Below are positions 9,841 to 63,882 of a DNA stretch of 64,000 nt, piece by piece. The notes beneath the pieces were generated by a model that was not told the origin of the DNA, searched no databases, and was given only the letters and a program-made list of their open reading frames with translations. The translations under genes and the position numbers were made by a program. How positions within the stretch are numbered: position 1 is the stretch's first letter; the number at the start of each line of letters is the position of its first letter. Source of the stretch: Paramacrobiotus metropolitanus (lineage: Eukaryota > Tardigrada > Eutardigrada > Parachela > Macrobiotidae); contig NW_026570305.1 of NCBI RefSeq assembly GCF_019649055.1, forward strand, positions 434,001 through 498,000, written 5' to 3'.

Positions 9841-11405
<1,565 letters not shown>

Positions 11406-13966: not shown

Positions 13967-14459
13967 TTAATGTTACCGCTTCCGGACTCCACTGGGGGCA
14001 CTGGAGCCCCGGCTGCTGGGAGGCTGGTGCTCTCTGTGATCGGCTGTGTGCGGTGACCGTGGGTCAGCGAGAAGCCGGCCGACCGGGGGTCGGCGGAAGA
14101 GAGCGGCCAGTGCCCTGCGCAACCGAAGGCCCCTTTATTGAGCAAGTGCGAAATAACAGAAGAAACAGCAGGGTGTGGCGGGTGGTAAAAGAACAGAGAT
14201 CACTCGCGCGCACACGATATCGTAGGAGCAAAGACAGACAGCAGTGAGAACTGCAGAACCATGCAATGCGAGCACACGAACAGAACCAAGTGCAAACAGC
14301 ATCCCCGTGCATGACGGCGGCCGCTTTGGTCTAAGCGCCACGGCGACGCGCAGCGCCACCAACAGACTCACGTAACTCGCAACACACGGCGAAAGGAGAC
14401 AGAGCGGGAGCGCATGTCCTCCAGCTAACATTAACATCAATTAACTCGTTAATTGTCAT
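13967..14459. repeat. Composite GC-rich element, copy 1
   Basis: It consists of block A (13967-14133, 167 bases), an 87-base spacer and block B (14221-14459, 239 bases). Both blocks recur almost unchanged in the next element, offset by 493 and 1216 bases. It starts with TTAATGTTA and has TAACATTAA near its other end, a weak hint of inverted termini. GC content is clearly above the surroundings. Open frames within are by-products of the repeat. Confidence 0.75.
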
Positions 14460-15675
14460 TTAATGTTACCGCTTCCGGACTCCACTGGGGGCACTGGAGC
14501 CCCGGCTGCTGGGAGGCTGGTGCTCTCTGTGATCGGCTGTGTGCGGTGACCGTGGGTCAGCGAGAAGCCGGCCGACCGGGGGTCGGCGGAAGAGAGCGAC
14601 CAGTGCCCTGCGCAACCGAAGGCCCCAAACAAAACCTCAAACAACTCAATACAAGAATTGATGAGCCGTTGGCACGGTTCTGCGGATGTATTTGGTGAAG
14701 ATTCGGAGTTCCATTGAGAGCAGGTAATATCCGGCTATCTTTATGTGGCCAGGGCTGACGTCGTTACGTTGCCGATAAGGAGCGGTGCGGTGTGATGATC
14801 CCGGCGTGGTGTGGCAGGATCCGTGGTATGTCAGGATCCAGTCAGGTTTTACCATGCAAGGTGCTACCGCCCTTCGGGGTCTGCTTGCCGCCAAAGATCA
14901 CCGCACCGGAGGTGACGGCTTGGTATGCCGTCCGAGAAAGGTGCAACCGCTGCTGGGGGTCTGCTTGCCGTCGAAGGTAGGCGCACCGAAGGTGATGGCC
15001 TTGCATGCCGTCCGAGGGAAGTGCAACCGCCGCTGGGGGTCCCTTTGCCGTCGGAGGTAGGCGCAGCCAAAGTTGGTGGCTTAGTGTGCCCGCTGTGCCG
15101 GGCGGAGTTGCAGGTAATGTCTGGCCGTCGGAGGAGGATGTGGCCGTGGTTCAACACCTGCCTTGCCGTCCGCGGTAGGCGTAGCCGTCGCTGTTGGCTT
15201 GCCTTGCCGTCGGAGCTGGGTGCGGCCTTAGTTAAAGCCTGCCCTGCCGTCCGAGGTGGTGCAACCGTCATGTTGGCTTTCATGCCGCCGGTGGGAGAGA
15301 AAGCCGTAGCTGGAACAAGCCAGTTCTGCCGTCAGAAGTGGTGAAGCCATCCTTGGTGGCTTACTGTTTGCAAGGGTTGGTGCGGGCATAATTGTTGGCT
15401 TGCCCTTCCGTTCGAGAAGGGTGCTGCCGTAGTTTTCGTAGGAGCAAAGACAGACAGCAGTGAAAACTGCAGAACCATGCAATGCGAGCACACGAACAGA
15501 ACCAAGTGCAAACAGCATGCCCGTGCATGATGGCGGCCGCTTTGATCTAAGCGCCACGGCGACGCGCAGCGCCACCAACAGACTCACGTAACTCGCAACA
15601 CACGGCGAAAGGAGACAGAGCGGGAGCGCATGTCCTCCAGCTAACATTAACATCAATTAACTCGTTAATTGTCAT
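14460..15675. repeat. Composite GC-rich element, copy 2, with internal minisatellite
   Basis: Block A is repeated at 14460-14626 and block B at 15437-15675, directly abutting copy 1. The spacer is expanded to about 810 bases and is largely minisatellite. The head-to-tail arrangement suggests tandem insertion or unequal exchange. No transposase was found. Confidence 0.75.
14865..15430. repeat. Degenerate 36-40 bp minisatellite
   Basis: Units built on TGCCGTCGGAGGTAGGCG followed by a GTTGGCT-like end recur about every 36-40 bases, with a higher-order period of about 80 at the left. Because many units are near multiples of three, long frames appear on both strands; these are not considered genes. 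Confidence 0.7.
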
Positions 15676-17090
15676 GTAGTTTCTTTGGAATATCCTTGAA
15701 GATCCAAACCATATTTTTACGTACAGACTACAGAGTACTACAGCGCACTATACAAAACCAATCAAAATCACAATCTCAACAGTCGGAGGCGGCTTAAGAA
15801 CAGCGAACAACTGACATAAGCTCCCGACTACCGGTGGAGCCAAGCCTATCTCTGAATGAATGCCGCCTTCCTACGCCGGATTTCTATGCTGATGTTTTGG
15901 TGTAGAATCTGTAGATACTGTATTTCGTTGCTCGTGCCTCGCCGGCTTCCTGCCGTATCTCCTGGCCATTTCCGTGATCGGGCGAGTAACTCCCCGGTCT
16001 GAAATGTTCAAGAATTTGGAATTCTGGGGCGCCGAACAGGAAGCCCTACTGGTTAATGGCACGCGGGCATTGTCTTGTTCAGAATTTCGGTGAACAATAA
16101 TGGCAATATTAGCGGTGGCACGCGGGGTCTAAAACAATTTGTCTAACCAATTTCAATATGATTCCACGAAAGATCAATAAAATATTGGACATTGAACTAT
16201 AATAATAACGCAGATAAATTAGCAGCCAGTGTGGACACTGGACAGCACTACCCACTTAAGCAGGTTTACATTACTTGAAGAAGTTTACAAAACAGCATAC
16301 GATGCTTGAAGTTGAAATGCTCCAAAAGAAGACCTTTATTAACTTAAGGCGAAGGCATTTGGAGCTGCTTCCAATAAAATTAGTAGACCAATTTGACATT
16401 AATTTATATCCTGAGACTGCCACACTAAAATACCGCAGGAGCTTTCATACGTTCCGGCGGTCACTTTGTACAGATACGTTATGCGGTCAGTGGAAGTGCC
16501 TCTGAGGTACAATTATTGGCCGAGATTCTTTAGCTGCGGTCGTTGTTTGGTAGTTTTACGGCACCGGCCATGGTCAACAGAAGCCGTTTCCCTTGATCTG
16601 CCCCGGCTGACTGTACTGAAAACGTCACGTGAAATTTTGAATGGCTTCTTGTTGCATAACAAAACCTGAACAATAACGAGGACATATCCTGGATGCAGAT
16701 AATGAAGATAATAAAGCGGTTCCGCTTTCTAGTTGCTGAAGTATTTGTTCTTCTTATCAGCGGCCACAATTGCGGAACACTTACTGTAAAGAGAGCTCAA
16801 ATTAGGCCGCTATCTGGTAGTTATTTAGTCACCACTCAAATACATATGCGTGATATTCCAGTTTACTTTACGAAGAAAATCAGCTTAAGAGGCATCTTAT
16901 TGATTTCTTCTACATGGTAGTAGGATAAAAGATATATATTGCGTCATGTGGTTTGATCTGCGTAACATAAACCTGGATTATTATCGCTGAACACCGGAAA
17001 GCTGACCGTTGTTGCTTATTTACCGGCTACGATTAGTTGTTGGTTTTCTCGATAGATAGAAATTTTCCGTGTAGACTTCTTATATAAAAC
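15676..17090. other. Intergenic, no gene seen
   Basis: I find no supported gene or element. Several 60-80 codon frames lack any family signal. Confidence 0.45.
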
Positions 17091-20350: not shown

Positions 20351-21802
20351 TCACACACAGGTACATCTTGCGGAACTACAAGTGTACTGCGGTAAAAAAT
20401 TGAAAAAACCTTCAGCCCCGTTTAACGCCGGATATATCATGTGCGCGCCTTGTAAGCCACCGGAGGAAAAAGTGGTCAGCGTACATCCCGGGTCAACTAT
20501 GGTCGACTGCATTCTGCCCATATCAGCCGCCTGCAAATTGCCGTTGTGTCCGTTGACCAGGTCGACACTCGCTCCTATAAACCACTGGGAAGGGAACAAC
20601 CGTGCACACCGTTTGCCACCAGGAGTAACGATTGTCGGTTGAGTGGGGGTGATCGGGGTGTCTGGGTACATGGCTCGAATCTCCTGGATGTCGGTAGCGC
20701 TCAGTCCGTCGCGCTGTCCAATTGCCGTGCCCTGCCAAGGCGCTTTCGGGCGAATGGTGTAAATACCGGGGTTGGCAGCGAACTCGTACTGATGGTAATG
20801 CATTATAGACCCGAAATCGTAAGTTGTGCCGAATGTCGAACCATCGTTATAGGTCAGGAAATTGTTGTGCCATACTAAAAGTAAGAAAAACTCACAGCTA
20901 TCCCGCTTTTGAATTGTTCATTAGTCTATGATTAAGCTTCAAAGAAGGTACCGTACATTGATTAGTATTTTGCGATGTTACTGAAAAAAAGTTTTCTTTA
21001 TGCGTCTTCTATCGTAATCCAGATTTTGTCTGCTTACGTATTCAAAAAATTATTTTGGATGAATTCGACTAGAAATCGAGATGCATGTATAACATTGTCT
21101 TACATGCTGGAATGTTGCTCCAATTGATCTCGACGTACGTATCCCGGTCAGTCCTGGATTGTTCATGATAGAATCCAATGGCATGCATCAGTTCATGCAC
21201 AATTGTTCCGTGTCCATAGCATCCACTACCCAATGTCAGTTTCTGAGAGCCTCCCACCATACCAATATAACTAGAGCACCTGCAAATTATAAAACCGGTT
21301 AAAGCAACAGTTTTAAAATTAAGGAAGACCGTGGTATTCGACTTACCCGGGTTCTGACACAATATCAACGTAATTAGTTTCGAAGACACGTTGCTGGAAG
21401 CGTACAGCATTGGATGTCTTGACCGAGATGTCGGACATGGCATTCAAAATATTCTGCCGCACGACGGAGTCGAAATTGGAGGCAATCTGGTAGTAAACTA
21501 TTCCATTTGGCCAACGTTTCGCGAACACTCCGGCTTTGCTGATGCTGGTTATTTTGGCTTTCTACGTGCAAACGAAATACGGTTAAAATCCGCTGAGTAC
21601 TTTAATGACCTTTGTAGCTTACAATATCGGCATCAGTATCCCCAGGTTCGATTATGCCAGCAATGTCTCCTTCAAACAGCCGGGATTCTTCAGCTTTGGT
21701 GGGCCTTGTACAGCCAACTTCACCTGTGCCGGAACTGAGCGGCGCCGTCATCGCTGCACAGATCAAAGACAATAAAACAATACCCTTTTGAAGTAGCTGC
21801 AT
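20351..21802 (-). CDS. Secreted astacin metalloprotease with C-terminal beta/gamma-crystallin-like domain
   Basis: Exons in coding order are 21802-21623, 21561-21347, 21279-21104 and 20874-20351. I chose the ATG at 21802 because it opens a clean signal peptide ([21 protein letters not shown]); a longer frame begins at 21847 but puts a poor leader in front. The prodomain stretch is [11 protein letters not shown]. Catalytic domain: [12 protein letters not shown], zinc site [19 protein letters not shown], Met-turn [11 protein letters not shown] Thr/Pro linker leads to the crystallin-like domain ([20 protein letters not shown], ending ARCTCV). Exon lengths 215 and 176 equal those of the 9.8 kb gene. 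It is a likely secreted protease with the same cleavage role as its paralogues. Confidence 0.86.
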
Positions 21803-23764: not shown

Positions 23765-25434
23765 ATGGATAAAAACGTGTTCTTTCTAATGTCATTTATT
23801 TGTGCTGTTTGTGCGGCACCCTTCGATCTGAGCGAAAACGCGCAGTTCGACTTAAAGGTCACCGGCAAGACCTTATTTGAAGGAGACATCGCTGGTGTTA
23901 TTCAACCAGGAGAAACCGCTGCTGATTTAGTAAGCTGCACAAGGTCACTTTTAAAATAATTTAGTCAGCTTTATAGCTTGGTAAATGTTGTAGCGGACTA
24001 AACTCGACAACCTGCATAAAGCCGGAGTAGCGCCCAACCTGCGGTGGCCCAACGGCGTCATCCACTACCAGTTCACCGGGCAGTTCAGTCAAAGCGATCG
24101 GAATGCCGTTAGAGAAGCAATGACGGAGATCACGACAAAGACCACCAATGTCATTCGCTTCCAAGAGCGCTATTATGAAACTGATTACGTCAATATTGTG
24201 AAGGAAGCCGAGTAAGCTTTTGATTTTTCTAGACGGGTGATGTTGGATGAATAAAAACCCTTTGATTTGCAGATGCTCGAGTGAAGTGGGGAAGATAGGT
24301 GGTGCGCAGAAGCTGTCGTTGACGGACGCCTGCATAGCGGTTAAAGGAGCCATAATCCATGAACTGATGCACGCCATTGGATTCTGGCATGAACAGTCCC
24401 GATTTGACCGTGATGCCTACGTAGAAATCAACTGGAGTAATATTCCCGAAAGTAAGCGAATTTCTCTGCCCTAAAATGAACAATCATCAGCTAGAATTAT
24501 GCCACTAGAATGTAGCTACAGTAGAATAGAGTAGAGATACGTAGAAATACAGATACAGTACTGTACTGTTACCCTGCACTTGCCGAAATTTTGTACAGTA
24601 CGAGCGGTGCGGTACTGTAGCCATGTGAAAGTTAAGCCGTTCATGTTCAACTAGCAGCCAGCTGCCTACACGCTGCTGCAGACCGAGTATGTGAATCATG
24701 AACGGAGACTGAGCGCGCTCGTACTACGTACGCCTGGTTGAGCCACTGAAACTATCGGCAAATGCAGGGTAACAGTACAGTAATGTAACCTATGCCTAAT
24801 TTGTTTTATTTAATTTTATTTTATTTGCATCGTTTGTATTGATACTGACGGCACGGATTTTCGGTTTTCAGTGATCTTTTCTTCGTGTGAACAGAATGCA
24901 CTTTTTGCTAAACTTGTTTTTTTACCAGACAAACGCCCCGATTTCGAAGTGCGTGCCTACGCCCATACCTACGGTACCGCGTACGACTTTGGCTCCATCA
25001 TGCACTCTGGTCCGTGTGATTCCGCTGTGGACCCATGTCCCACGAATTTCACAATAACAGCCATAACTTCAACCCAAACCTTCGGACAACGCAACGGCCT
25101 TAGCCAGATTGATATCCAGGAAATCCGAGCCATGTATGGAGCCACAACCACCACCATTAATCCCTCTGGCAAATCATGTGCCACCTTGTTTCATAATCCA
25201 AACTTCTTGGGAACGAACGTGATACTAATGAGCGGACACAATGGAAACCTGGAACCGGCTGATGCGGGACTGGTGCGGTCAGCCAGGGTTTGGTCGGGAT
25301 GCACGTTGACGACATACCCCTTTGTTGGCTTGCAAGGTGCCGGGCTGGCTTATCCAACTTTCCCGCCAAGCGATGGGTTCTTTAACTTCTCGCCACAGAA
25401 TCCTTGCAGCTCGGCGCGATGCACCTGCATCTGA
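23765..25434 (+). CDS. Secreted astacin-like protein with crystallin-like tail and altered Met-turn
   Basis: Exons 23765-23929, 23994-24211, 24273-24451 and 24929-25434 join in phase to about 355 residues. The signal peptide is MDKNVFFLMSFICAVCAAP, with prodomain [11 protein letters not shown]. The catalytic domain has RWPNGVIHYQF and an intact zinc site [19 protein letters not shown]. The Met-turn reads SIMHSGPCDS: the Tyr that follows SIMH in the paralogues, and is usually a zinc ligand in astacins, is Ser, and two extra Cys follow. The last part is the crystallin-like domain (CATLFHNPNFLGTNV, GCTLTTYP, ending ARCTCI). The third intron holds a TIR element. Activity may be reduced or altered. 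AATAAA lies shortly after the stop. Confidence 0.82.
24559..24782. mobile_element. Short TIR element (MITE) in an astacin intron
   Basis: The 28-base ends 24559-24586 and 24755-24782 are inverted repeats with one mismatch. The outer bases are TA on both sides, so a TA target duplication with termini beginning CTGTACTG is likely, as for Tc1/mariner-derived elements. It has no coding capacity. Confidence 0.7.
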
Positions 25435-38997: not shown

Positions 38998-39831
38998 GAT
39001 GGAGGAATACGGAAGCTCGTAGCGGAGCTGGAGACTGACACGAAAGCTACGAAGGGGACGAAACTCATCGCGCCCATACTGTACAAACTCATCGATGAGA
39101 ATCAACAGCTGCGTAAAAAAGTCGAAGCGCTCGAAGGGCAGCAGCTACGTCGGAGTGTGGGTCAACTGAGAGATGATGTCACAACACTTGGGACTACCAT
39201 GCAGCGAATTGTGGAAGAAGAACTGCCGGCGCTGGAGAACCGAGTTCTTGAGACCGAATCCAAGATGGCGGAGAACCGTGCCGAACCGGATCAGCCTGCA
39301 GCACATCACCAGCCAACAATGCCTAAAGCAAACAAGCCTGTGCGTTCAACAACCAACCCATCTAATGATCCTGAAATCGTCGAAGTCAAGACTGATTGGG
39401 CTACTGTAACTCGTCGAAAGATCATCAAAGGAAATCATCGAACTGGAGGAATTGACGATGCTAACCCACGACACAACCTGGCCAAAAAGCTAAGTTTGCA
39501 ACGTAAAGCTCATTTAGACGTATGCGTAATGGGTATTCCGCTACATAATAATGCGGGATTCGAATCTACAGAAGAATATGCGAACGATTTTAAGACATCA
39601 CTGGGGGATTTGGGTGTGAATGTACGCTTTGTTAAAGTCTTTGAGCGTAAAGAAGGTGACAAGCGTAGTACTACTTGCGCGCGTATTGGTACTTTCGCCG
39701 ATTGTGAAGATGCCCTGATGTCAGCAGATATATGGCCTACGAATGTATCGCTGAGGCGCTGGGAATATAAACCACCTGCTCCGCAGGCGGGAAACGGGAA
39801 ATCGCGGGTTTTTCATCGCAACCAGCGTTGA
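38998..39831 (+). CDS. LINE ORF1 protein, coiled-coil type
   Basis: The frame is open from 38998, but its first ATG is at 39199. The sequence before that ATG already reads as a heptad-like coil (LIDENQQLRKKVEALEG), so a start upstream has probably been lost; ATGGAGGAATAC at 38999 lies in another frame, pointing to a small indel. The middle is charged and linker-like. The C-terminal half (AHLDVCVMGIPLHNN to SADIWPTNVSLRRWEY) looks like an RRM-like ORF1 fold. No zinc knuckle is seen. ORF1 proteins bind the element's RNA. Confidence 0.6.
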   Translation, partial: DGGIRKLVAELETDTKATKGTKLIAPILYKLIDENQQLRKKVEALEGQQLRRSVGQLRDDVTTLGTTMQRIVEEELPALENRVLETESKMAENRAEPDQPAAHHQPTMPKANKPVRSTTNPSNDPEIVEVKTDWATVTRRKIIKGNHRTGGIDDANPRHNLAKKLSLQRKAHLDVCVMGIPLHNNAGFESTEEYANDFKTSLGDLGVNVRFVKVFERKEGDKRSTTCARIGTFADCEDALMSADIWPTNVSLRRWEYKPPAPQAGNGKSRVFHRNQR

Positions 39832-42779
39832 AAGACTCGCTAAGATGTGAGAAATTTAGATTGGTCAAACCTGCAGTAAAATCTAAGCTGTCGGCGTTCA
39901 CAAATGTTAAATTCAAACTTTGTAATATTAACGGTATACTTTCCAAGTCTTCTTCCGTAAAACAGTTTTGTAGTGGTTCTGACATAGTCGGATTTACAGA
40001 AACTTGGGATAGATCTGAATACCCAGATTCGTTATTCGCTGATTTGAGAAGCTTCAACGTTTTCAGGCGACCTAGAAGTACTGATCCCCATGGTGGCGTG
40101 TGCTTTGCCGTTCGAAAAAATTTAGACGCTGTAAGACGGACTGACCTGGAAAATAATGATCTTGAGTTGTTGTTTATAGAAATAACAAAAATTAATATTT
40201 TAGCTGCGGCATTTTATTCGGCGCCTTCTCGAGTATCTATAGATCTTCCAATTTTGATCGAACATCTGAGAAATATCCCGCATGCAAATTTTTCAAAACT
40301 GCTACTTGTTGGTGATTTCAATCTTCCCGATATTGATTGGACTAAGAATTGTGCGAGTAGCAAACAAAGTCGTGAATTTTTAAGGTGTTTGAAAGAGTTT
40401 AATCTAAAACAAATAATTTTTTGCCCTACGCGTAAAAACAATATTCTTGACTTTTGCATTATTCCTACGGTGTGGTCAGCAAGTGTCCCTGAAAGTGTTT
40501 GCCCTCCGTCAACAACAAACGATCACAATGGGGTTTTCATTGAATTTCCTAGGCAGAAACGAAAAGATACTAAAGTACTAAAAAAGCGTTGGGTAATTAC
40601 GGATGAAGCTAGTTTACAGTTTCGTAACCATTTGTATGAAATTGATTGGAATGCACTGCTACTAAACCTTAGTCCGGATGAGCAAGCGGTTTTTATTGAA
40701 AACACGGTTCTTGAAGTAGCTAAGGCATTCTTTCAGCTAAAAGAGGTCAGGTACAGGATGGCTGAATTCGAGTATCCTGCAAGCTTGCGTAATGCGATAC
40801 GTAGCCGGAACTCTGCATTTGACCGTTTTAAGCGTGAGCTGAATACTTTGCGAAAAGAAAGATTGCGACATGAATGGTTGAAAAAGTCTCGGTTAGCAGA
40901 GAGGCAGGCTAATGCATATTACCGTATGCAAACAATGAAGATTGCGGCTGTATCTCGGCATGATAGCAAAAAATTCTGGCGCTTCGTAAAAGCTGCGGTA
41001 GATCGTCCAAATATGCCTCCACTGAAACGACCGAATGGTCTTCATGCTGTGGACGATGAAGAAAAGGCTGAGTGTTTAAATGAACAATACGCGAGTGTGT
41101 TTGGCCAGTGTCCAGTGCATTGTATGGCTGCTGCTCATGTCACTGAAGATGTAACAGAAGAAAGCTTATTTGCTAGTGATAGCGACATTTGGGACGTTCT
41201 GCAAGCAATTAATTGTAATAAATCTAGCGGACCGTATGATCTATCTTCAAACCTTCTTAAAACTTGTGGCGCTTCACTGATCCATCCCCTGAAAATTTTG
41301 TTCAATAATTGTTTAAAGAAAAGCGTATTTCCCATGTCATGGAAAACCTTTTTCGTAACTCCGGTCGTCAAACAAGCCGCTGATCAGACCAACCCTGCAA
41401 ACTGGCGCCCAGTGGCAATGTTACATCCTCTGTCGAAATTATTTGAAAAATTTATTTGTAAAATTTTGAAATTGCAAATTGGTAATTTTACAGATAAACA
41501 ATTTGCTTACCGTGAAAAGCATTCTACCGAACTTTTGTTAACTTTGTTCTGTCAAAAATTAGCAGATGCTAAAGGTCGTGGTAAACGTGTCGACATTATT
41601 CTGTTGGATTGCAGCAAGGCTTTCGATAAGGTTGATCACTCTATTTTACTTGCAAAATTATCGAAAATGAATGTTTCGTGTAAAGTTGTAAACCTTATCA
41701 GTAGCTACCTATCAAATCGAGTGCAGTCGGTTATTGTAAATGGCAAGAAATCGGTGTTTTTACCGGCTACAAGCGGAGTCCCTCAAGGGTCGCTTGTCGG
41801 TCCCAAATTGTTTAACTGTCTCCTTAGTGATTTTCCTGCTGTTTGTGTCCATGGCAGTGAAATGTTGCTGTTTGCTGATGACGTAATGATGTACAAAATA
41901 ATCGAATCAGATGTGGATGCGCTAGATTTCCAAAAAGATCTGGATGCCGTCACTGAATGGGCGCGCAAGCATAACTTGATTTTCAATGCGAAAAAGTCGG
42001 CCTGTATTCAGTTCTCGTTCAGAAAGAAAATATCTCAGCCCTATAAAGTAAACGGAGAAAGTGTCCCCATAGCTGATTCGGCTAAGTATTTGGGAATTTA
42101 CGTAGAGCGCAGTTGCAAATGGAAATTGCAGTCTGAAAATATTTCGAGTCGAATGTTAAAGCGTTTGCGTTACCTTAACACGTTATTTCGTTCCCGAGAC
42201 TTGTCAGCACGTTGTATGCTGTATACGAGCCTCGTTCTGTCCATCTCTGATTACTGTGCGTCTGTCACCTTTTCAACTCAAAAAGGACTAATCGATATTG
42301 TGGAGAACGTTCAAAAAAGATTCATTCAATCACTTCACCTTAAAACTGACCGGATAGACTATATTGGCAGATTAAAGGAGCTACAGTGGGAGCCCATTGT
42401 ACGGCGCAATCTGAAGCGCAGTCTTCAGCTTACGTACAAGTTTGTATACAACCTAGTCCCTTATGGCGACAAGTTATTTTGTAAGGATACTGCGGTGCGC
42501 TCTGGTGTTGCAGGTGCTACGCGTCATCAGCAGATGATGGCTGGACATCCGTGCCCGATTTCCCCTACTGGATCAACGTTTGGTGGTCACATGCTCCCAA
42601 CATCGGACCGATCGTTTGCTTATCGGATGGCGAGGATCTGGAATGACTTGCGGATTCCTGCGGAATCGTACCAGAGTCTTGGCAGATTTACTGCCGCTTT
42701 AAATTGTGTCGATTGGAATTCTGTAGTGTCTTTGAAGAAGTTTTACCACGCTGAGCACGTGTTGTTACTGAAAATGTAA
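39828..42779 (+). CDS. LINE ORF2: AP endonuclease and reverse transcriptase
   Basis: A frame of 983 codons without interruption. The endonuclease has CNING (about residue 34), TETW (about 57), GDFNLPDIDW (about 161) and NDHNGV (about 230). The reverse transcriptase has LLDCSKAFDKVDH (about 594), SGVPQGSLVGP and LLFADDVMMYK (about 679), as in CR1/Jockey/Rex1 LINEs. The frame opens at 39771, overlaps the ORF1 end by 61 bases in the -1 frame, and has no ATG before about residue 330, so translation must come from reinitiation at a non-ATG codon (TTGA overlap) or from frameshifting. The intact frame suggests recent activity. Confidence 0.85.
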   Translation: MKDSLRCEKFRLVKPAVKSKLSAFTNVKFKLCNINGILSKSSSVKQFCSGSDIVGFTETWDRSEYPDSLFADLRSFNVFRRPRSTDPHGGVCFAVRKNLDAVRRTDLENNDLELLFIEITKINILAAAFYSAPSRVSIDLPILIEHLRNIPHANFSKLLLVGDFNLPDIDWTKNCASSKQSREFLRCLKEFNLKQIIFCPTRKNNILDFCIIPTVWSASVPESVCPPSTTNDHNGVFIEFPRQKRKDTKVLKKRWVITDEASLQFRNHLYEIDWNALLLNLSPDEQAVFIENTVLEVAKAFFQLKEVRYRMAEFEYPASLRNAIRSRNSAFDRFKRELNTLRKERLRHEWLKKSRLAERQANAYYRMQTMKIAAVSRHDSKKFWRFVKAAVDRPNMPPLKRPNGLHAVDDEEKAECLNEQYASVFGQCPVHCMAAAHVTEDVTEESLFASDSDIWDVLQAINCNKSSGPYDLSSNLLKTCGASLIHPLKILFNNCLKKSVFPMSWKTFFVTPVVKQAADQTNPANWRPVAMLHPLSKLFEKFICKILKLQIGNFTDKQFAYREKHSTELLLTLFCQKLADAKGRGKRVDIILLDCSKAFDKVDHSILLAKLSKMNVSCKVVNLISSYLSNRVQSVIVNGKKSVFLPATSGVPQGSLVGPKLFNCLLSDFPAVCVHGSEMLLFADDVMMYKIIESDVDALDFQKDLDAVTEWARKHNLIFNAKKSACIQFSFRKKISQPYKVNGESVPIADSAKYLGIYVERSCKWKLQSENISSRMLKRLRYLNTLFRSRDLSARCMLYTSLVLSISDYCASVTFSTQKGLIDIVENVQKRFIQSLHLKTDRIDYIGRLKELQWEPIVRRNLKRSLQLTYKFVYNLVPYGDKLFCKDTAVRSGVAGATRHQQMMAGHPCPISPTGSTFGGHMLPTSDRSFAYRMARIWNDLRIPAESYQSLGRFTAALNCVDWNSVVSLKKFYHAEHVLLLKM

Positions 42780-49085: not shown

Positions 49086-52000
49086 ATGTCGAAAATAGTT
49101 GCTGGCGCGCCACCTTCTGGTCAGACAGCGAGCGATGGGAATCGGAAAAGGGAACTACTGCTGACTGGGCAGGACAGTAGTGATGTGACCTTTATTGTGG
49201 GTAGCCAGCATGGAAGCGGCGTGCAGACCTACCGAGCCCACAAGTAAAATGCTCGTTAAATTGTCAGATTCCTCATGATGTTATAATCAACAATCAGTAA
49301 GGATCCAACACAGGATGCAAATATAATGTTGCTTAGGGGGGTTTTGCTGGGTAGCGGAAGCGCGGTTTTTCAGCGCATGCTGAACGGGGAAACCGGCGTC
49401 CATAATTTGGTTTTCGAGGTGACGGATGTGGCACCGGAGGCGTTTCTGAACATGCTGTGGTAAGTGCCAATTTGATTGAAGTCCATACAATCGAGTACTA
49501 CTACTTACAACTCGGGTTGTATGCTATTATCTAACCATAAAACACCGAAAAAAAGCTAAAAAGCAGGATGAAACTGGTTTTACTGGAATTTTTAGGGCAA
49601 GCAGATGCTTTATTAACTGCATATGCACAAAATTTTCGGACGCATAGCACCTTTGCTAACTACGTGAATAAAATTAATTTAACATAAAAGAATATAAATG
49701 CAAAATGCAATGCAACTGCACTGCATTTCAACGATAACAGGAAATTATAAATTAATATTGATTGTGCTATTATAAGTTAATAATTATTACAGAAATTCTT
49801 TCCCATCCCGTATATCACGCGCACGCATGTCCTTTTTCCTTTGACGAGTATTATTGACATCTTTTATTAATTTAAATAATAGCACAGAGTTAAGGGCAAT
49901 TGTTTCATCAGAGTAAGATTATAATACTTGAGGCGCGTCAGAATTACATACGGCAATGTTCCAGTTCTAAGGCGTTTCACCAAGATTAATCACCTTTTTT
50001 TCATTTTAATCGGCACTGCTACTTACATGTACGAGTACATGTCTGCAGTGCCGACCGGTGGCACCAACTGGAGTGAATGGATAATTATTTAGCTTGAGGC
50101 GTGGCTGGCGCCGATCCGTATTTGTTGTGTCTCCTTGGTTTTTCGCTACGTTGGAGAAGTTGCAGGAAGTTTTTTCTCACACCGCCGTTAGAGCGGGGCC
50201 ATCCTATGGTCGGCTGACTCCGCTTCGTTTTCACTGACTGCATGGTCGGAAGAGAACTTCAATCTCCGGCTTAAACGTTGATTCCCCCCGCCCCCCTCCC
50301 CCCCGCTTTATCTTCCCAGCTTCGCTCGTTTTCGGATGGCTAAATCGGCCATCAAATGATGACCAATTCAGCGCTGGAAGCGGCGGTAAATAATAATATA
50401 AGTACAAGTACAACTGCACAAGTACCGCAAATGATGGCGAATGACTCATCGTTGCTTGCGGGAAGTATCACTGGTTTTTTTATTATTTTTACAATCACAG
50501 GAAACATGCAAATTAATACTGGGATAATTATTACAGAAAAAATTGCAAAAATATTTTGATCATGCAATATTTCATAATATTACCGTAAATATTAAAACTC
50601 GTAGAATTAATATAGAAAAATGTTACGATCATACAATATTAATTTTATACTCGTGTTACCTTATTAAAATGGGTGTCCGTGATAAGTAGGATGCAAAAGC
50701 CTTCACAATCGGTTTTTTATTCTCCTATAGGTTTCTGTACACGGACGGCGTTGAAAATCTGAACTCTGACACCGCATTCAGCACTATGTTATGCGGTGAC
50801 AAGTATGAACTTCCGCTACTGCACGATTTGTGCTGGGAATTTATTATCGGCAACGTGAACAAAGACAACTGTCTGCTGATCATTCAAAAAGTAAGTTACA
50901 CCTCGTTTTCCCAGTATTTCGAAAACAATATAAAAAGTTGCATGCATGCTTATGAAGCGCCTGTCAACAACATTAAATGCAATATGATCCTTTTTCCAGG
51001 CGGAAGAAATGAACGCGCCGGCGGTTGTGAAGAAATGTCTGGAATTGATCGACACATGCGGAGCGGAAATTCTACTGTCCGATGGTTTTTGGACTGTAAA
51101 GCGGACCACCCTGGAAATGATTCTCAAGCGGGACACGCTGACAGTCAATGAAAAGGATGTTTTTGAAGCCGTAAAAAGGTGAGATTTCTAAAATTAATTC
51201 GAGTTAAGTGATTGTTACACTCTACTACTCTAGAATTAAAACGTTAGATGTTCCGTTTTGCCGTATACGTATTACGCAAATAGCATTTTTCTATTCGAAC
51301 ATTGAACTCAATGCTGATGATTTACGCGCGGTGGAAGTATTCCTGTTAGCTGTTTCTCGCGGTCTGTTGGTGTATTAATAAACGTTTTAACCACTGACCG
51401 GTTTCACTTTTTTAGTTTAATCTTGTACGCATTCGCTACATACAGAGTACTCTATGCGTGGTGCTAAATCTGCTTTAAAATGCTGCAAAATTACAATTAT
51501 TTACATCATTTACCGTAATTATATTCGATAATTCGATAATTACGGTAATTACATTTATTTTAAAAATTAACTTACATTTTGTCTTCCGTTATATCTACGT
51601 ACGATGTAACGTATCTACGTACGATGTTATGTCTTCCGTTATATCTACGTAGTAGTATAACAAAAATGTAAATAATGAAATACAAATTTAACTTTGAAAT
51701 TTTGTCATGTATTGTTAATAATGTAATTAATTATTATTATTTAAATTAATTAATTACACCGTATCTGCCTTTATACAATATTGCATTATAGGTGGGCGAA
51801 ACATGCATGTGCCGCTGCCGGTCTGGAAGTATCGGCGAAAACCTGCCGGGAATTGTTGGGATCAGCGTTCTTTCTTATCCAGTTTCCGTTGATGGCATAC
51901 GCGGAAATTCTTGACGCATATCTGGTAACACAACCATCTGACGCCACTTACTGTCAGTTTTAATAGTGAAATTGCCTTAATTTTCAGTCGGGTTGGTTGA

Positions 52001-52401
52001 AAGGTCGCGAAGTTGGACAGATCTGCGCCAGTAAATACGCCGCCGATGGCGTCCAACCATCGAAGCAGTTTGCCGGCACCCGGAAACCTGCCTTACTTCC
52101 GGCGCCAGTGCAGCCACAACGCCACCATCCAGACGATCAGGGTGATCGCGCGGAGTCCCAGCCTTCGGCGACTTTTACTAAACATTATCGCAAGAAAGTG
52201 TCGGCATACGATTTGTTCTGCGCGGAGGAACGCAAGCGTAACCGAGCGGCGAATCCTAAGGGAAGTTGCGCCCCGAAAGAAATTGCGCGTCGCTGGCATG
52301 CCGCTGACTACGCCACCAAACAGGAGTTTCAACGACTGGCAGAGTTGAAAAAGGCGCATATGGTGAAGAGCAAGAGTACTGCCAAATGGTACAAGTGTTG
52401 A
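49086..52401 (+). CDS. BTB-BACK protein with C-terminal HMG-box-like domain (copy 1)
   Basis: Exons 49086-49243, 49337-49459, 50731-50890, 51000-51178, 51792-51924 and 51988-52401 join in phase to 388 residues. BTB/POZ domain, residues about 22-140: SSDVTFIVG, YRAHKGVLLGSGSAVFQRML, VAPEAFLNMLWFLYTD, CGDKYELPLLHDLCWEFI. BACK-like domain about 150-250: CLELIDTCGAEILLSDGF, TLEMILKRDTLTV, RWAKHAC. After a basic linker, residues about 310-370 form an HMG-box-like domain: KKVSAYDLFCAEERKRNRAA, then CAPKEIARRWHAADYATKQE and FQRLAELKKAH. BTB-BACK proteins dimerise and often act as Cullin-3 adaptors; HMG boxes bend or bind DNA. I know no standard family with this combination. Confidence 0.82.
50283..50305. 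repeat. C-rich homopolymer-like tract in BTB1 intron 2
   Basis: A run of mostly C (CCCCCCGCCCCCCTCCCCCC) stands alone in AT-rich intron sequence. A short frame just after it (about 50360-50560) has a membrane-like stretch but no other support. Confidence 0.6.
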
Positions 52402-53300
52402 TTGCTGCGCAAAATCCCAGTTTTGCGAAAATCTGACAGAAATTTGCGGCTGTTACGTATTTAGACTAGCATATTTTTGCATTTCCTGAAGCCGGTTCAC
52501 TGTAAACATGCGTTTTTGTGTCATCTTTTTCGACATTATGTTACCGCTAAACATTTCGTCTTGTTTTGGGAAAACATTATATGTTAAGCTCTACTTTGAT
52601 AACTGTGTAAAAAGTTAGGTTGTTTTTTGTTGAATACCACGTTTCTCTTCCATATATTTCACTAATACGATTTATTAGCTAGCCATTAAAAATTTTAATT
52701 TAAGTTCTATTCGATAAGGTTGAGGAAATTCACCGAAAAGTCTGTTGTACAGTTTTTGATAGCCTCTCCTGTGGTCTTCTCGCAGCATTGTGTTGTTGTC
52801 AATCTCCCCGATCGTATTTCGAGAACTTCAAACCGATTTTATGTTTGAAATTCTTTTCTCTTGCATCACAAATTAAGAAGGGAAAAAGTGAACCTCTAAT
52901 GGTTTTTGAAAAAATTAAAACTGGTCTCGACCAGATGCCGAAACCTGGTAGAAAGGCTAAAATGTGAATGATTCGTGGAAAAAATTTGTCATCCCCAGCC
53001 TGGCGAAAATTTAGCTCTGGACTACGGTGCACTGGAGTCATCCAGAAATACATTTTTTAATTTATGAAAAGAATCGGAAGTTTGAGGAGACAGGAAAGTG
53101 GGAAAGGAAGAAAATCTGTGTCGTACAAAAAAAAATTAATAATTTCTTTCAGTGAAGGTTCGAAACGTTCGAAACGGAAAAAAATCCGGATAAAAACAAG
53201 GATACTATTACAGTATTACCAATCAATCCCGTGTTAGAGTGTTTTCCTGGCCGGATTCGAGGTTAACTGCCCAAAGTTACCGTAAAAATAAGCAGTATTA
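52402..53300. other. Intergenic between BTB copies
   Basis: This is the 3' flank of copy 1. No gene is seen. The duplicated upstream region of copy 2 begins at about 53303. Confidence 0.5.
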
Positions 53301-53761
53301 CGTATGAGATGTTTTCGCGAACTGCGCGCACTCTTTGAATAGTAAGGGCCATCTTTTTAAAGATTAAAGGGACAGGCAGACAATACTAGGAAGAGGGGCA
53401 GGATGGCAATCCGCAGATATCCTGGTTAACGCAAAAAGATAAAGAAAAGCCAGACAATCAGTTAGTCAACAGGTTTATTTCACGTCTTACCAGTTTTGCT
53501 ATGAACGCGGACAAAATATGGACATGGTCATTTAGCCAAGCCGAACAGCCAGATATCAGACGCTAGAGTGACCTGCCTTTTTCAGTTTTCACCACTCACT
53601 CACTGGGCCGACATTCTGCAAGTTTACAATATTTTCAAGTCTTTCTTGCGCGCCGACAGCATTACAGTTATTTTTATCCGCGATACGGTGTTAAGTCGTT
53701 CCCAAACGGTGCTTCAACTCTACAGATCGATAGCCGATAATCTGTTCTATTTATTTCAAAA

Positions 53762-56238
53762 ATGTCGCAGTCAGATTCTACCGCGTCACCCAGCGTAGGG
53801 AATCGCAAAAGGGATCTACTGCTGACCGGACAACACAGCGATGTGACCTTTATTGTGGGTAACCACCATGGAAGCGGCGTACAGACCTATCGAGCCCACA
53901 AGTAAGCCAGCCATTACATTGTCAGTGTTACTCGTACAAGGACGAAGCAGCATGCATCTAACACTATAACAACGGATGGGAATGCTGTTTAGGCGAATTC
54001 TGCTGGGCAGCGGAAGCGCGGTTTTCCAGCGCATGCTGGATGGAGAAACTGGCGTCCCGTATGAATCGGTTTTCCAGGTGGCGGATGTGGCACCGGAGGC
54101 GTTTCTGAATATGCTGTGGTAAGCGCTAATTTGATTACCATACACAAATACGAGTACAACTTTGTGTTGAAAGTTATCGCTCAGTATCCAATATTAGAAT
54201 GTGCGTTGTGCCACAATTATAAAGCATGTCAATAAAAAAATAATAACCCCGAATTATCCTTGGCTTTTCTGTTTTACGACCAGAGAAAACAAGCAACTTG
54301 ATATAATTGTTTTTCGATGTGCCAATGATTTATTCCAACCTTGCACAAGCAAATGCCGTTTAAACTTAAAACTCAAATTTTCGATAGCTAGAAGCCTAGA
54401 ACAAATAAAAAAACTCTTCCAGCTGTTGATATAATTAATACAGAAATATGTAAAAACACTAGGTTCGCATAATATTTCGTACTATTAATTTATAAAAATT
54501 GTTGTATGTGTAATGTAGGAAACAGGATGAAAAATGGGCGTTCATAATATGTGAATTAAAGCTAGCCGGGCTTTACTAACAATTAATATTTGGGTATCAA
54601 GAATATTAGGTATGGTCACATTTGTTCACAATGGGGATATTCTCGTAATTCTAAACGCTCTATCTTCATAATGGTGTTTTGTGGTTGTAGGTTTCTGTAT
54701 ACAGACACTGTTGAAAATCTCACCTTGGACACCGCGTTTACCACTATTTCGTGCGGTGACAAGTATGGACTTCCGTTGCTGTGTGAATTGTGCTGGAAAT
54801 TTATTACCTCCAACGTGAACAAAGACAATTGCCTGATGATCATTCAGAAAGTAAGTTGCGCCTTTATTTAAAAATGTTTCGAAAATAAATCAAAAAAATT
54901 GCGACAACCGCATTGTATTTTTATACTGTGAAGCGCCTGTTAATAATCTTGACTGTTCTCTTTTCAGGCGGAAGAGATGAGCGCGCCGGAGGTTGTGAAA
55001 AAATGTCTGGAACTGATCGACACGTGCGGCGCTGAAGTATTATTGTCCGATGGTTTTCGGACTATAACGCGGACCATCCTGGAAATGATTCTCAAGCGGG
55101 ACTCGCTGACAGTCAATGAAAAGGATATTTTCGAGGCGGTGAAAAGGTAAACCTCGATGTTTCTAAGTCTAATTCGAGTCAAACGATTGTCACACTATAG
55201 GACTACAAAGTTGGAACTCCGTTTTATTCTGTATATTATGCAAACAAGCGTCTTTTTCATGGAACTAAGTGCTTGCGATTTAAGCGCGCACTGGATGTAT
55301 TCCTCTTAGCTGTTTCATACACTCTGCTGGTTTCCATTAACAAAATTTTAACTGCTAACCGGCTGGCCGGTTTCCACTTTTTTAAAACTAAATGGTATGC
55401 ATTCCCTAGAAGTATGTATGGTGCTAAATTTGATTTAACGCACTACAGAATTTTAATTAGATAAATTAATTGGGTACATATTTAATTTCGAAATTGTATC
55501 CGCATTTCATAGTATCTATCTACCTTTATATTTAATTATACTGTAGGTGGGCGAAGCATGCATGTGCCGTCGCCAATGTGGAAGCGTCGGAGAAAAACTG
55601 CCGAGAAATGTTGGGGTCAGTGTTTTTCCTCGTCCAGTTTCCGTTGATGGCTTACGCGGAAATCCTTGACGCATATCTAGTAAGTGGTAACACTGTCGTC
55701 TGTTTAGCGAGCCTGTCTATCAATTCGATAATGAAATCTTTCATATTTGCAGGCGGGTTGGTTGAAGGGTCGCGAAGTGGGACAGATCTGCGCCAGTAAA
55801 TATGCCGCTGATGGCGCCCAACCATCGAAGCAGTTTACCGGCACCCGGAAACCTGCCTCTCTGCCGACGCCCGTACAGCCACAACGCCACCATCCAGACA
55901 ACGGCGAACGCGCTGAGCGCCAGCCTTCGGTGATTTTTGCCAAACAGCATCGCAAGAAAGCGTCTGCGTACGATTTGTTCTGCGCGAAGGAACGTAAGCG
56001 TATCCGAGCGGCGGATCCTAAGGGAAATTGCGCTCCGAAAGAAATGGCGCGCCGCTGGCATGCCGCTGACTACGCCACCAAGCAACACTTCCAGCGATTG
56101 GCGCAGTTTAAAAAAGCGCACATGGGGAAGGGAATGAGTGTAGTCAAAGAGCACACCCGCACCAGCAATGACTGCAGCGTGAAAACCCCGCTTTACGAAA
56201 TAGGGATCGACACTGCGGCTGCCACATATTTAGACTAG
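53762..56238 (+). CDS. BTB-BACK protein with C-terminal HMG-box-like domain (copy 2)
   Basis: Exons 53762-53901, 53993-54118, 54691-54850, 54968-55146, 55547-55679 and 55753-56238 give 407 residues. Internal exon lengths 160, 179 and 133 equal those of copy 1, and the domains match residue by residue: HSDVTFIVG, YRAHKRILLGSGSAVFQRML, WFLYTDTVENL, CLELIDTCGAEVLLSDGF, RWAKHAC, then KKASAYDLFCAKERKRIRAA, CAPKEMARRWHAADYATKQH, FQRLAQFKKAH. It has a longer tail ending AAATYLD. The N-terminus is six residues shorter than copy 1. Both copies are open throughout with conserved splice sites, so the HMG-like part is maintained as coding sequence. Confidence 0.82.
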
Positions 56239-61463: not shown

Positions 61464-61848
61464 ATGTCGCAAATAGCCGCTACATCGTCTACCGGTTCCG
61501 GCCACACAGCCGGCCTTGCGGAGTGCTATGGGCAGCTGCTGGACACCGGTCACCTTAGTGACATCCTGTTTAAACTTGTTCCACGCCACGGAAACGAAAT
61601 CGTACGGACATTTCCGGCCCACAAGTAAGCGGAACATTGTTCGGAAGCACCGGAAAGAGCAACCTATTAAGAACCTACCTCTGGAGGATATTAACTCACA
61701 TAATACTGCTTTATAGGGCAATTCTACTTACCAGGAGCCAAAATAGCCCAGCCTTCAAACGCATGTTAAACGCGGCAGCACCGGTCCCCCGTGGATTTGA
61801 GATTCTTGTGAAGGATGTAGAGCCGGAAGCGTTTGAGAACATGCTATG
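61464..61848 (+). CDS. Third BTB paralogue, first two exons only
   Basis: Exons 61464-61624 and 61717-61848 encode HLSDILFKLVPRH, TFPAHKAILLTRS, AFKRMLNAAAPV and VEPEAFENMLW, matching exons 1-2 of the two upstream BTB genes with the same intron phases. The expected next exon (YTD to IIQK) is not found in the following 1.8 kb, so the gene is truncated, interrupted by inserted sequence, or continues beyond the window with a long intron. Divergence from copies 1 and 2 is much greater than between those two. Confidence 0.65.
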
Positions 61849-63693
61849 GTAAGCGCCATTTTCCGGCAGGCGGTGGGGTTGCCACTGCGACAGAGGGTGT
61901 TTAGCACCCGAGACCATATGGCTCTGTTGTGTAGAATTTGTAAGGGTAGTCTTTTTTGTAGAAGCAGTAGTTTAGCCATATGTGTCCTGTCAAGGACGAT
62001 TTTCGGGTTGGGTGTTTCGATATAAATGAGGCCGCTTTTAAAGTTCTCTGACGAAATGATTTTGGATTGGAAGTTATCGGATGGGGGAGGTAGGTATTTC
62101 CTGGTGATTGGTGGTTTTGTGAAGCATAGTGTGCTGTGGCCCTGTGGGTATATAAAAGGAAATCGGAGTGCGGTGGAAATTTAGTTGGTTAAGGGAAGTT
62201 GTGAGAAGTTTGTTGTATGGATTGTGTTGTAAGATCTTATTTGATAGTTTGAATTGTAAAGCTTGTTGTAGTAAGGTGGAGAGTGATTTGGAGTGCCTGG
62301 GAAGAGGTGTTTGAAGGGATTTTGGCAGATTTGTGACAAGTAAGGAATATTTGTTTTTAGTGAATTTTTTTTAATTATTGTTAATTTTTTAATGTATTTG
62401 GTTTCTTAAGTAAAATAGATTAAGAGATATTAAGGAATAAATAGAGTATTTGTTGGCGTTTGACTTTATGGCAGTGTGGTTTAAAAGGAGAGTTTTAAGG
62501 AGATTAGTATTAAGAAGGTTAGTTTTAAGGAGGCTAGTTAATTTTTTCTTGCAATTTTATACAGTATATCTGTATATTCGGATGTTTGGTGTGTAGATGC
62601 TGTTGAGAGTACGTTTATAAAGTAGGAAAACTAGGTGTGCATTGGCAGACCGGAGCGTAGCAGCTTTTCGCTTGTGTGAAAGATAAATAATTTTTAACGT
62701 GCTACCAGTAGCACTTTTAGTATTTAACATTATCAATAATTTAACCTAAGAATATAACGAGCCAGGAACATTTTCGTAATGACCTTTGGTAACAACCTTT
62801 CGTAACGAACACAGATACATTTTTGCATTGGCGCTGAACTTAGAGGACTTTCGCTACGATTTAAGAATGAAAATTGATTTGATTCTACGAAAGATTTGCT
62901 TTAAATGTTATATCATCATTTAGTTTTAGAATGTCAAAAAAAGTTGTAAATGAGTGATTTGGATAGGCGGAAGTTAAAATGAAAATTATCTTAAGGTATA
63001 GTGAGTTGATTAATAGAGTGGTAGAAATAATATTTATGTTAATCAATGATGAAAGATATTATGTAAGAAAAGGAAAATATGGAATATATGAAGGAAAATA
63101 GAAAATATATTACGGAAAATATGGAAAAGGATATTGTGGTAAAATATAGAAAGATTAGGTGGCATTATAGGAAATTTATTTGGCATTATGGAGTTATGTT
63201 GTGTAGATATTGTAATTGATAAAATCAAAATGAAGAAACAGGTGGATGTAGTGTTCCGTATGGTTTATTGTATAGTATATGGTGCGTATAATGTACTGTA
63301 AAGTTGACTGGTTTTATGGTTTGAATCTGGGTATATTATGGAGTAAATATAGTTATGGATGAATGATTATGTGTGTGGGAAAAAGATATTTTGAAGAATC
63401 ATGTGGGTGTAACGATCCGTATGATGTGAAGGTTGTTGTATTTAGGGATTTTTATTTTACTAAAGCTGGTAAATATTTTGAAAAAACAGGTGGGTGTAAC
63501 GTTCCGTATCATTCAGTATTTTAGGGTATTTTGATTCGTTTTGAGATTGGCAAGTGAAGTTGGAGTTATGAGAGACAGGTGGGTGCAATGTTCCGTTTAG
63601 AGGTTTACAAATGTTTTTCATTGTAGATTAAATTCGGAAAAATTTGGAGAACATGATTTTATGGTATTTAATAATGAATTTTTATTTTGATAG
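61849..63693. repeat. C-poor, repeat-bearing region after BTB exon 2
   Basis: The plus strand is rich in G, A and T and strikingly poor in C from about 62150 to 63650. A motif near ACAGGTGGGTGTAACGTTCC occurs four times (63238, 63401, 63487, 63575). AGTTTTAAGGAG words repeat near 62485-62540. TGCATTGGCAGACC is at 62638. No gene is seen. Confidence 0.5.
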
Positions 63694-63882
63694 ACGAAAT
63701 TCCAGGAAGTGCTATGGATATTGTTGTCACTGACGACAATACAACCGTATTGCAGCCTGAATCCAGCAAACGATCTGCTGGTAAGAAATTAAATATAATT
63801 ATTTATTTTAAATTTATTTTTTCTAAATTTATTTATTTACCATTTATTTGTTTATACAGGAACTCAGAAGAAACGAAATTAA
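63694..63882 (+). CDS. Last two exons of an unassigned gene
   Basis: Exon 63694-63780 (EIPGSAMDIVVTDDNTTVLQ, then PESSKRSAG) is followed by an intron with clear GTAAG and TACAG ends, and by exon 63860-63882 (TQKKRN, stop). The phase is consistent between them. Direct joining to the BTB exon ending at 61848 would create a stop, so at least one exon is missing or this is another gene. Acidic then basic, low-complexity C-terminal tail; no domain recognised. Confidence 0.4.

What the first reader, a model, noticed from the sequence alone, without database searches (positions are those of the whole stretch)
49086..56238. Two intact genes fuse BTB, BACK and an HMG-box-like domain
Seen: six-exon genes with matching phases encode a BTB domain, a BACK-like region and a C-terminal SAYDLFCAEERKR...KEIARRWHAAD segment with HMG-box spacing. 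Known: BTB-BACK proteins usually carry Kelch, zinc-finger or MATH partners; I know no standard BTB-BACK-HMG class. Inference: a lineage-specific chromatin or ubiquitin adaptor that targets DNA through the box.
Basis: partly seen in the sequence, partly recalled or inferred. Interest (0 to 1): 0.85.

Follow-up and report, generated by a model that had tools for sequence, protein, structure and literature searches.

The report
BTB-BACK genes with HMGB-like box
Neighbouring duplicate genes in an unnamed animal genome join a protein-pairing module (BTB-BACK) to a shortened, altered copy of a DNA-packaging module (HMG box), and neither part keeps the residues best known for its usual job.

Summary
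Two six-exon genes (388 and 407 residues, GT-AG introns, phases 0,2,2,0,2,0) encode BTB, BACK and an HMG-like C-terminal box. The box scores below Pfam's curated cut-off (20-23 against 25.4 bits) but far above 6000 shuffles. Its best match elsewhere in the genome is an HMGB-like box on contig C10 (56-59% identity to genes 1-2), and all three copies lack the same two residues, so one fusion before duplication is likely. Between genes 1 and 2 the box is under purifying selection. The CUL3-binding phi-x-E site reads T-G-V, T-G-V, A-P-V; 14 of 20 readable paralogs keep phi-x-E. The primary DNA-intercalating position is Asp, Asp, His; none of 16 other boxes read has either, though 4 are polar there. 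Structure prediction is inconclusive. Best reading: a BTB-paired basic protein, probably neither CUL3 adaptor nor intercalating DNA bender. New variant of a known kind; expression and clade distribution untested.

The parts
49086..49243 (+). gene 1 exon 1 (ATG 49086; start of BTB)
49337..49459 (+). gene 1 exon 2 (BTB; T-G-V at the phi-x-E site)
50731..50890 (+). gene 1 exon 3 (end of BTB, start of BACK)
51000..51178 (+). gene 1 exon 4 (BACK)
51792..51924 (+). gene 1 exon 5 (BACK region)
51988..52401 (+). gene 1 exon 6 (linker plus HMG-like box, stop)
52201..52362 (+). gene 1 HMG-like box core, residues 323-376; residue 326 is Asp at the primary intercalation site
   Evidence: coordinates worked out by hand from the exon table
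53762..53901 (+). gene 2 exon 1 (ATG 53762; start of BTB)
53993..54118 (+). gene 2 exon 2 (BTB; T-G-V at the phi-x-E site)
54691..54850 (+). gene 2 exon 3 (end of BTB, start of BACK)
54968..55146 (+). gene 2 exon 4 (BACK)
55547..55679 (+). gene 2 exon 5 (BACK region)
55753..56238 (+). gene 2 exon 6 (linker plus HMG-like box plus longer tail, stop)
55963..56124 (+). gene 2 HMG-like box core, residues 317-370
   Evidence: coordinates worked out by hand from the exon table
61464..61624 (+). gene 3 exon 1 (third tandem copy)
61717..61848 (+). gene 3 exon 2; exons 3-6 lie past the window end in L001 at 4572-4731, 4821-4999, 5101-5227, 5318-5755, after a 6.7 kb intron 2

Best explanation
A BTB-BACK gene in this animal lineage gained, in its last exon, a copy of an HMGB-type box, most like the one on contig C10. 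The fused gene then duplicated into three tandem genes, with one truncated remnant on another contig. Shown: the architecture, the shared exon plan, homology of the box to HMG boxes, the shared deletion, and purifying selection on BTB, BACK and box between genes 1 and 2. Inferred: the BTB-BACK part pairs the protein with itself or a paralog but does not dock CUL3, because the phi-x-E contact is gone; the basic box acts as a non-intercalating, non-sequence-specific contact to nucleic acid or chromatin (pre-bent DNA or structured RNA), made two-handed by BTB pairing.
For: Gene models and phases. Pfam BTB, BACK and sub-threshold HMG_box; HMG_box also tops gene 3's exon 6, 17.3 bits, E 0.0066. 37.1, 37.5, 29.7 bits against at most 14.9 in 6000 shuffles. 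Profile of the three exon-6 products against PDB: 24 of 25 listed sequences are HMG-box proteins; best whole-sequence E 1.5e-5, a two-box HMGB1 whose boxes score 0.26 and 1 singly; best one-stretch hit HMGB1 at 3.1e-4. hhalign 98.3% to the C10 box and 97.4% to a 12-box alignment. C10 is the top blastp hit of all three among 16 boxes: 59, 56, 43%. 15-row tree: the three boxes form one group (83/87) on the HMGB side of a split (84/90) from the SOX-like boxes; no branch starred. Box, gene 1 against gene 2: pN 0.073, pS 0.355, Fisher 6.5e-5. phi-x-E absent in 3 of 3 genes, present in 14 of 20 readable paralogs; E85A of that motif in KLHL3 severely disrupted CUL3 binding (PMC3616122, passages). Two apolar intercalating residues drive HMG bending, the primary one in helix I (PMC4498601, passages). 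Box pI 10.1-10.5.
Against: The box is below Pfam's curated cut-off in all three genes. AlphaFold2 on two sequences joins helices 2 and 3; for the exon-6 model none of 21 Foldseek rows is an HMG box, and for the box-only model HMG boxes lead but with best E 0.66. 4 of 16 other boxes also have a polar residue (Gln, Ser, Asn, Asn) at the primary site, so a polar residue there is not unique. Of the 20 paralogs, 14 come from C182, C187 and C237 and are alike (11 of 14 with phi-x-E); of the other 6 only 3 have it. Box selection against gene 3 is weak (Fisher 0.031 and 0.018). A 19-row tree breaks the three-box group, and the tree does not resolve C10 as donor. No evidence here on expression, nuclear location or binding.
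Confidence: 0.4

Rival explanations
1. A CUL3 substrate adaptor that brings ubiquitin ligase to chromatin through a DNA-binding HMG box.
For: BTB plus BACK is the usual adaptor scaffold; nearest solved relatives by sequence are BTBD6, SPOP and KEAP1. Box basic, pI 10.1-10.5. BTB and BACK under purifying selection. 6 of 20 readable paralogs also lack a strict phi-x-E, so its loss is not unique; 4 of 16 other boxes are polar at the primary site.
Against: phi-x-E replaced by T-G-V, T-G-V, A-P-V; Asp, Asp, His at the primary intercalation site, a residue seen there in 0 of 16 other boxes read.
Confidence: 0.17
2. The box is now a protein-protein or structural helical tail with no nucleic-acid role; BTB-BACK does the work.
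For: Altered primary site and two-residue deletion, predicted merged helix 2-3, gene 3 box identical to gene 1 at only 19 of 61 aligned residues.
Against: Basic charge kept in all three; box under purifying selection between genes 1 and 2.
Confidence: 0.25
3. The C-terminal segment is not homologous to HMG boxes; the resemblance is chance.
For: Below Pfam's cut-off; no significant fold match.
Against: Shuffle control, profile hits to HMG-box proteins, 56-59% identity of genes 1-2 to the C10 box, hhalign 97-98%.
Confidence: 0.03
4. Gene-model artefact: exon 6 belongs to a separate gene and is not spliced to exon 5.
For: No transcript evidence available here.
Against: GT, AG and phase 0 at this junction in all three genes; GT and AG at the matching places of the C11 remnant (by eye). 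The open frame of exon 6 begins only six codons before it and has no Met before the box in gene 1 or 2, so a separate gene would need an unseen upstream exon; the linker is itself conserved.
Confidence: 0.05

Closest known systems
BTB-BACK proteins of the BTBD6 / SPOP / KLHL kind
   Same: BTB then BACK, both above Pfam cut-off; best solved relatives by sequence BTBD6, SPOP, KEAP1
   Different: Pfam reports no PHR, MATH or Kelch partner; HMG-like box instead; phi-x-E replaced
HMGB-type boxes, here the C10 gene of the same genome (family label recalled; its full gene model was not built)
   Same: Core 56-59% identical to genes 1 and 2, with shared SAYxLFCAxER and RRWxAADxATKQ blocks
   Different: BTB boxes are two residues shorter and have Asp or His instead of Phe at the primary intercalation site; they follow BTB-BACK, and no acidic tail is seen in the translations
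Maelstrom HMG box (PMC4373776: title, start of abstract in a listing, and passages read)
   Same: A divergent HMG box reported to bind structured RNA and a DNA four-way junction but not double-stranded DNA; offered as an analogy
   Different: No sequence comparison with Maelstrom was made here
BTB transcription factors with other DNA-binding domains (BTB-zinc finger, pipsqueak type; recalled)
   Same: BTB pairing joined to a DNA-binding module
   Different: Different module; recalled, not tested

Membership tests
BTB-BACK protein | BTB domain above curated cut-off | tested here: met
   48.5 and 48.1 bits against 20.5 for genes 1 and 2
BTB-BACK protein | BACK domain above curated cut-off directly after BTB | tested here: met
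   39.9 and 43.3 bits against 20.9 for genes 1 and 2
CUL3 adaptor | phi-x-E motif after helix 3 of BTB | tested here: not met
   T-G-V, T-G-V, A-P-V in genes 1-3; 14 of 20 readable paralogs have it; motif from PMC3616122
CUL3 adaptor | Physical binding to CUL3 | not testable with these tools
   needs protein; CUL3 contacts other than phi-x-E were not examined
HMG box | Profile score above Pfam cut-off | tested here: not met
   20.2-23.2 bits for genes 1-2 and 17.3 for gene 3, against 25.4
HMG box | Sequence homology to HMG boxes above shuffled controls | tested here: met
   29.7-37.5 bits against at most 14.9 in 6000 shuffles; 24 of 25 PDB profile hits are HMG-box proteins
HMG box | Three-helix L-shaped fold | tested here: inconclusive
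   Two-sequence AlphaFold2: helix 1 plus one long helix; 27 of 29 Foldseek rows are HMG boxes but best E 0.66; best VIA-align Z 3.4, rmsd 2.3, 49 aligned
Intercalating DNA-bending HMG box | Apolar residue at the primary intercalation site of helix 1 | tested here: not met
   Asp, Asp, His in genes 1-3; 16 other boxes: Met 5, Phe 5, Asn 2, Leu, Ala, Ser, Gln, so 12 of 16 apolar and 4 polar; site from PMC4498601, placed by the alignment to HMGB1

The most novel reading that the evidence does not exclude
A new class of BTB-BACK proteins in which an HMGB box was captured and reworked into a non-intercalating nucleic-acid or chromatin-binding module, arrayed by BTB pairing and freed from CUL3: paired architectural chromatin or RNA-binding proteins built from a ubiquitin-adaptor scaffold.
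Probability: 0.28. Interest if true: 0.65.

Novelty: new variant of a known kind. Interest (0 to 1): 0.45.

Why it matters
It is a clear case of a ubiquitin-adaptor scaffold joined to a chromatin-protein module, with a likely donor type of box, three intact copies and a truncated remnant in one genome, so the order of gain, duplication and loss of old contacts can be followed. If the box still binds nucleic acid, it tests whether an HMG box without its wedge can be rescued by pairing. Testing needs only small recombinant domains.

Tried and rejected
The first splice table had misplaced junctions (frame lost in gene 2); corrected. Gene 3 was first read as lacking exons 1-2, because a tblastn extension upstream of its exon 3 looked like a decayed exon 2; the real exons 1-2 are inside the window, with no N in the 6.7 kb between.

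Other BTB-HMG fusions: among 68 HMG hits and 150 BTB hits no pair on one contig lies within 10 kb (nearest 10,004 bases). But only 150 of 1036 BTB candidates were scored and the C85 BTBs themselves are not in that list, so others are not excluded. Two exon-6 searches found the three genes, one truncated copy on C11, the C10 box and weaker hits. The C11 copy stops early in the box, and the chromodomain ORF after it lies beyond that stop, so I do not call it a fusion; no earlier exon was recognised in about 7.5 kb upstream.

Fold searches: for the exon-6 model none of 21 Foldseek rows is an HMG box, and in its VIA-align list of 44 rows HMG chains appear only at Z 2.1-2.3. The box-only model puts HMG boxes on top without significance. 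Both models rest on two sequences.

Trees: the 19-row tree did not group the three boxes. I rebuilt with 15 rows, dropping C15, C2_3333A, C2_3333B and C4. The first three were flagged as long; C4 was not flagged, and gene 3's box, which was flagged, was kept.

Organism: not identified. Boxes of SOX type (label recalled) say animal. No Chitin_bind_4 hit argues against an arthropod, but that search had no positive control. One Lipocalin_7 hit was not informative. Literature: searches returned 0 papers; others (15 of 96 listed; 10 of 33 listed; 6 listed) showed no BTB-HMG fusion by title or abstract start; none of these papers was opened. Only open-licence PMC papers are held.

Full report
What is there. 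The two gene models were rebuilt from splice sites and give exactly 388 and 407 residues, with GT-AG introns and identical phases. The proteins are 79% identical. Exons 1-6 are 81-88% identical in DNA between the genes; the introns align at 63-75% in the columns that align, with large gaps in introns 2 and 4. A third gene of the same six-exon plan lies downstream: exons 1-2 in the window at 61464-61848, exons 3-6 in the next stretch of the contig, 398 residues, same phases. Its intron 2 is 6.7 kb long, without N.

Domains. Pfam finds BTB and BACK above cut-off in genes 1 and 2, and HMG_box below cut-off. Gene 3's exon 6 has HMG_box and HMG_box_2 as its only listed families, at 17.3 and 16.4 bits, also below cut-off. 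Because single scores are weak, I made controls. A profile built from 12 other HMG boxes of this genome gives 37.1, 37.5 and 29.7 bits to exon 6 of genes 1, 2 and 3, and at most 14.9 bits to 6000 shuffles of them. A profile of the three exon-6 products lists 25 PDB sequences: 24 are HMG-box proteins and one is a designed protein at E 0.72. The best whole-sequence E is 1.5e-5, for a two-box HMGB1 whose boxes score only 0.26 and 1 singly; the best one-stretch hit is HMGB1 at 3.1e-4. hhalign gives 98.3% with the C10 box and 97.4% with the 12-box alignment.

Origin of the box. In the whole-genome search with gene 2's exon 6 the best match outside the cluster is the C10 box (E 3e-8); with gene 3's exon 6 it is the C11 remnant, then C10 at E 0.039. 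Among 16 other boxes that I read (from the 68 hits), C10 is the best blastp hit of all three: 59% over 49, 56% over 50 and 43% over 49 columns. The C10 open frame begins near the SAY block after an AG, and an ORF with a lysine-rich and acidic stretch lies downstream, as in HMGB proteins; I did not build that gene model. All three BTB boxes lack the same two residues before the conserved Trp. A 15-row tree groups the three (83/87) on the HMGB side of a split (84/90); no branch is starred and the order inside is open. With four more rows the group is broken. A single fusion before the duplications is the simplest account, not a proven one.

Selection. Gene 1 against gene 2, Nei-Gojobori counts: BTB pN 0.110 and pS 0.333, BACK 0.081 and 0.335, linker 0.091 and 0.249, box 0.073 and 0.355 (Fisher 6.5e-5), last 12 codons 0.430 and 0.676 (not significant). 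So the box is kept while the tail after it drifts. Against gene 3, BTB and BACK stay strongly constrained but the box signal is weak (Fisher 0.031 and 0.018). The exon 5-6 junction has GT, AG and phase 0 in all three genes, and GT and AG at the matching places in the C11 copy (by eye).

Functional residues. CUL3 adaptors use a phi-x-E motif; in KLHL3 it is M83-S84-E85, and E85A severely disrupted binding (PMC3616122, passages). At the matching place genes 1-3 have T-G-V, T-G-V and A-P-V. Of 23 paralog loci scanned, 20 were readable there and 14 have hydrophobic-any-Glu (counted by eye): 11 of 14 from contigs C182, C187 and C237, which are alike, and 3 of 6 others. HMG boxes bend DNA with an apolar residue in helix I and a second at the start of helix II; HMGB1 box A has Ala16 at the first and cannot intercalate there (PMC4498601, passages). 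I placed this site by the alignment with HMGB1; that the aligned Ala is Ala16 is recalled. Genes 1-3 have Asp, Asp and His there; the 16 other boxes have Met 5, Phe 5, Asn 2, Leu, Ala, Ser, Gln, that is 4 of 16 polar but none Asp or His. The second site lies beside the two-residue deletion, so its residue is uncertain; the alignment suggests Cys in genes 1 and 2. The box stays basic, pI 10.1-10.5. Maelstrom's HMG box, reported to bind structured RNA and a four-way junction but not double-stranded DNA (PMC4373776, listing and passages), shows that a divergent box can take such a road; this is an analogy.

Structure. AlphaFold2 with the two window sequences gives block-mean pLDDT mostly 74-87 over the box, helix 1 and one continuous helix where helices 2 and 3 should be. 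For the box-only model 27 of 29 Foldseek rows are HMG boxes, best E 0.66 with TM 0.44; VIA-align best Z 3.4, rmsd 2.3 over 49 residues. For the exon-6 model none of 21 Foldseek rows is an HMG box. With two rows this is inconclusive.

Reading. A BTB-BACK family that took in an HMGB-type box and then lost the best-known contact of each part. The likeliest product is a BTB-paired basic protein touching chromatin or RNA without intercalation. Clade distribution and expression are unknown.

Noticed in passing
window 61960-63700 (intron 2 of gene 3): A C-depleted, strongly G-skewed stretch (skew up to 0.74) with repeats of the motif GGTGGRTGYARYGWTCCGTWT; the genome lists 40 exact matches in about 17 clusters on 14 contigs, 3 of them here, and 0 for the reversed control, so it looks like a dispersed repeat family. 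A TATA-like box near 62150 and a small spliced-looking ORF at about 63714-63882 lie on the same strand (by eye).
   Followed up: partly
window 10803-11402 +, 20354-20917 -, 24814-25431 +: Three astacin protease exons each followed in frame by a tail that looks alike by eye; one tail has sub-threshold matches to peptidase inhibitor I36 and beta/gamma crystallin.
   Followed up: partly
window 39771-42776 +: An open 1002-codon frame with endonuclease and reverse transcriptase domains, a LINE-like retrotransposon.
   Followed up: partly
L006 2418-3479 (C11, minus strand): A remnant of the same gene family (exons 5-6, stop early in the box) followed about 200 bases later by a chromodomain ORF.
   Followed up: partly
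L004 476-1663 (C11, minus strand): A BTB-BACK paralog with a C-terminal extension of about 170 residues that matched no Pfam family and no PDB sequence at E 0.01.
   Followed up: partly
G000 C159:5563-55842: A cluster of HMG-box part-matches, 15 of the 68 rows, distinct from this finding.
   Followed up: no
window 14001-16000: GC content rises to 0.57 against about 0.42 in most of the window.
   Followed up: no
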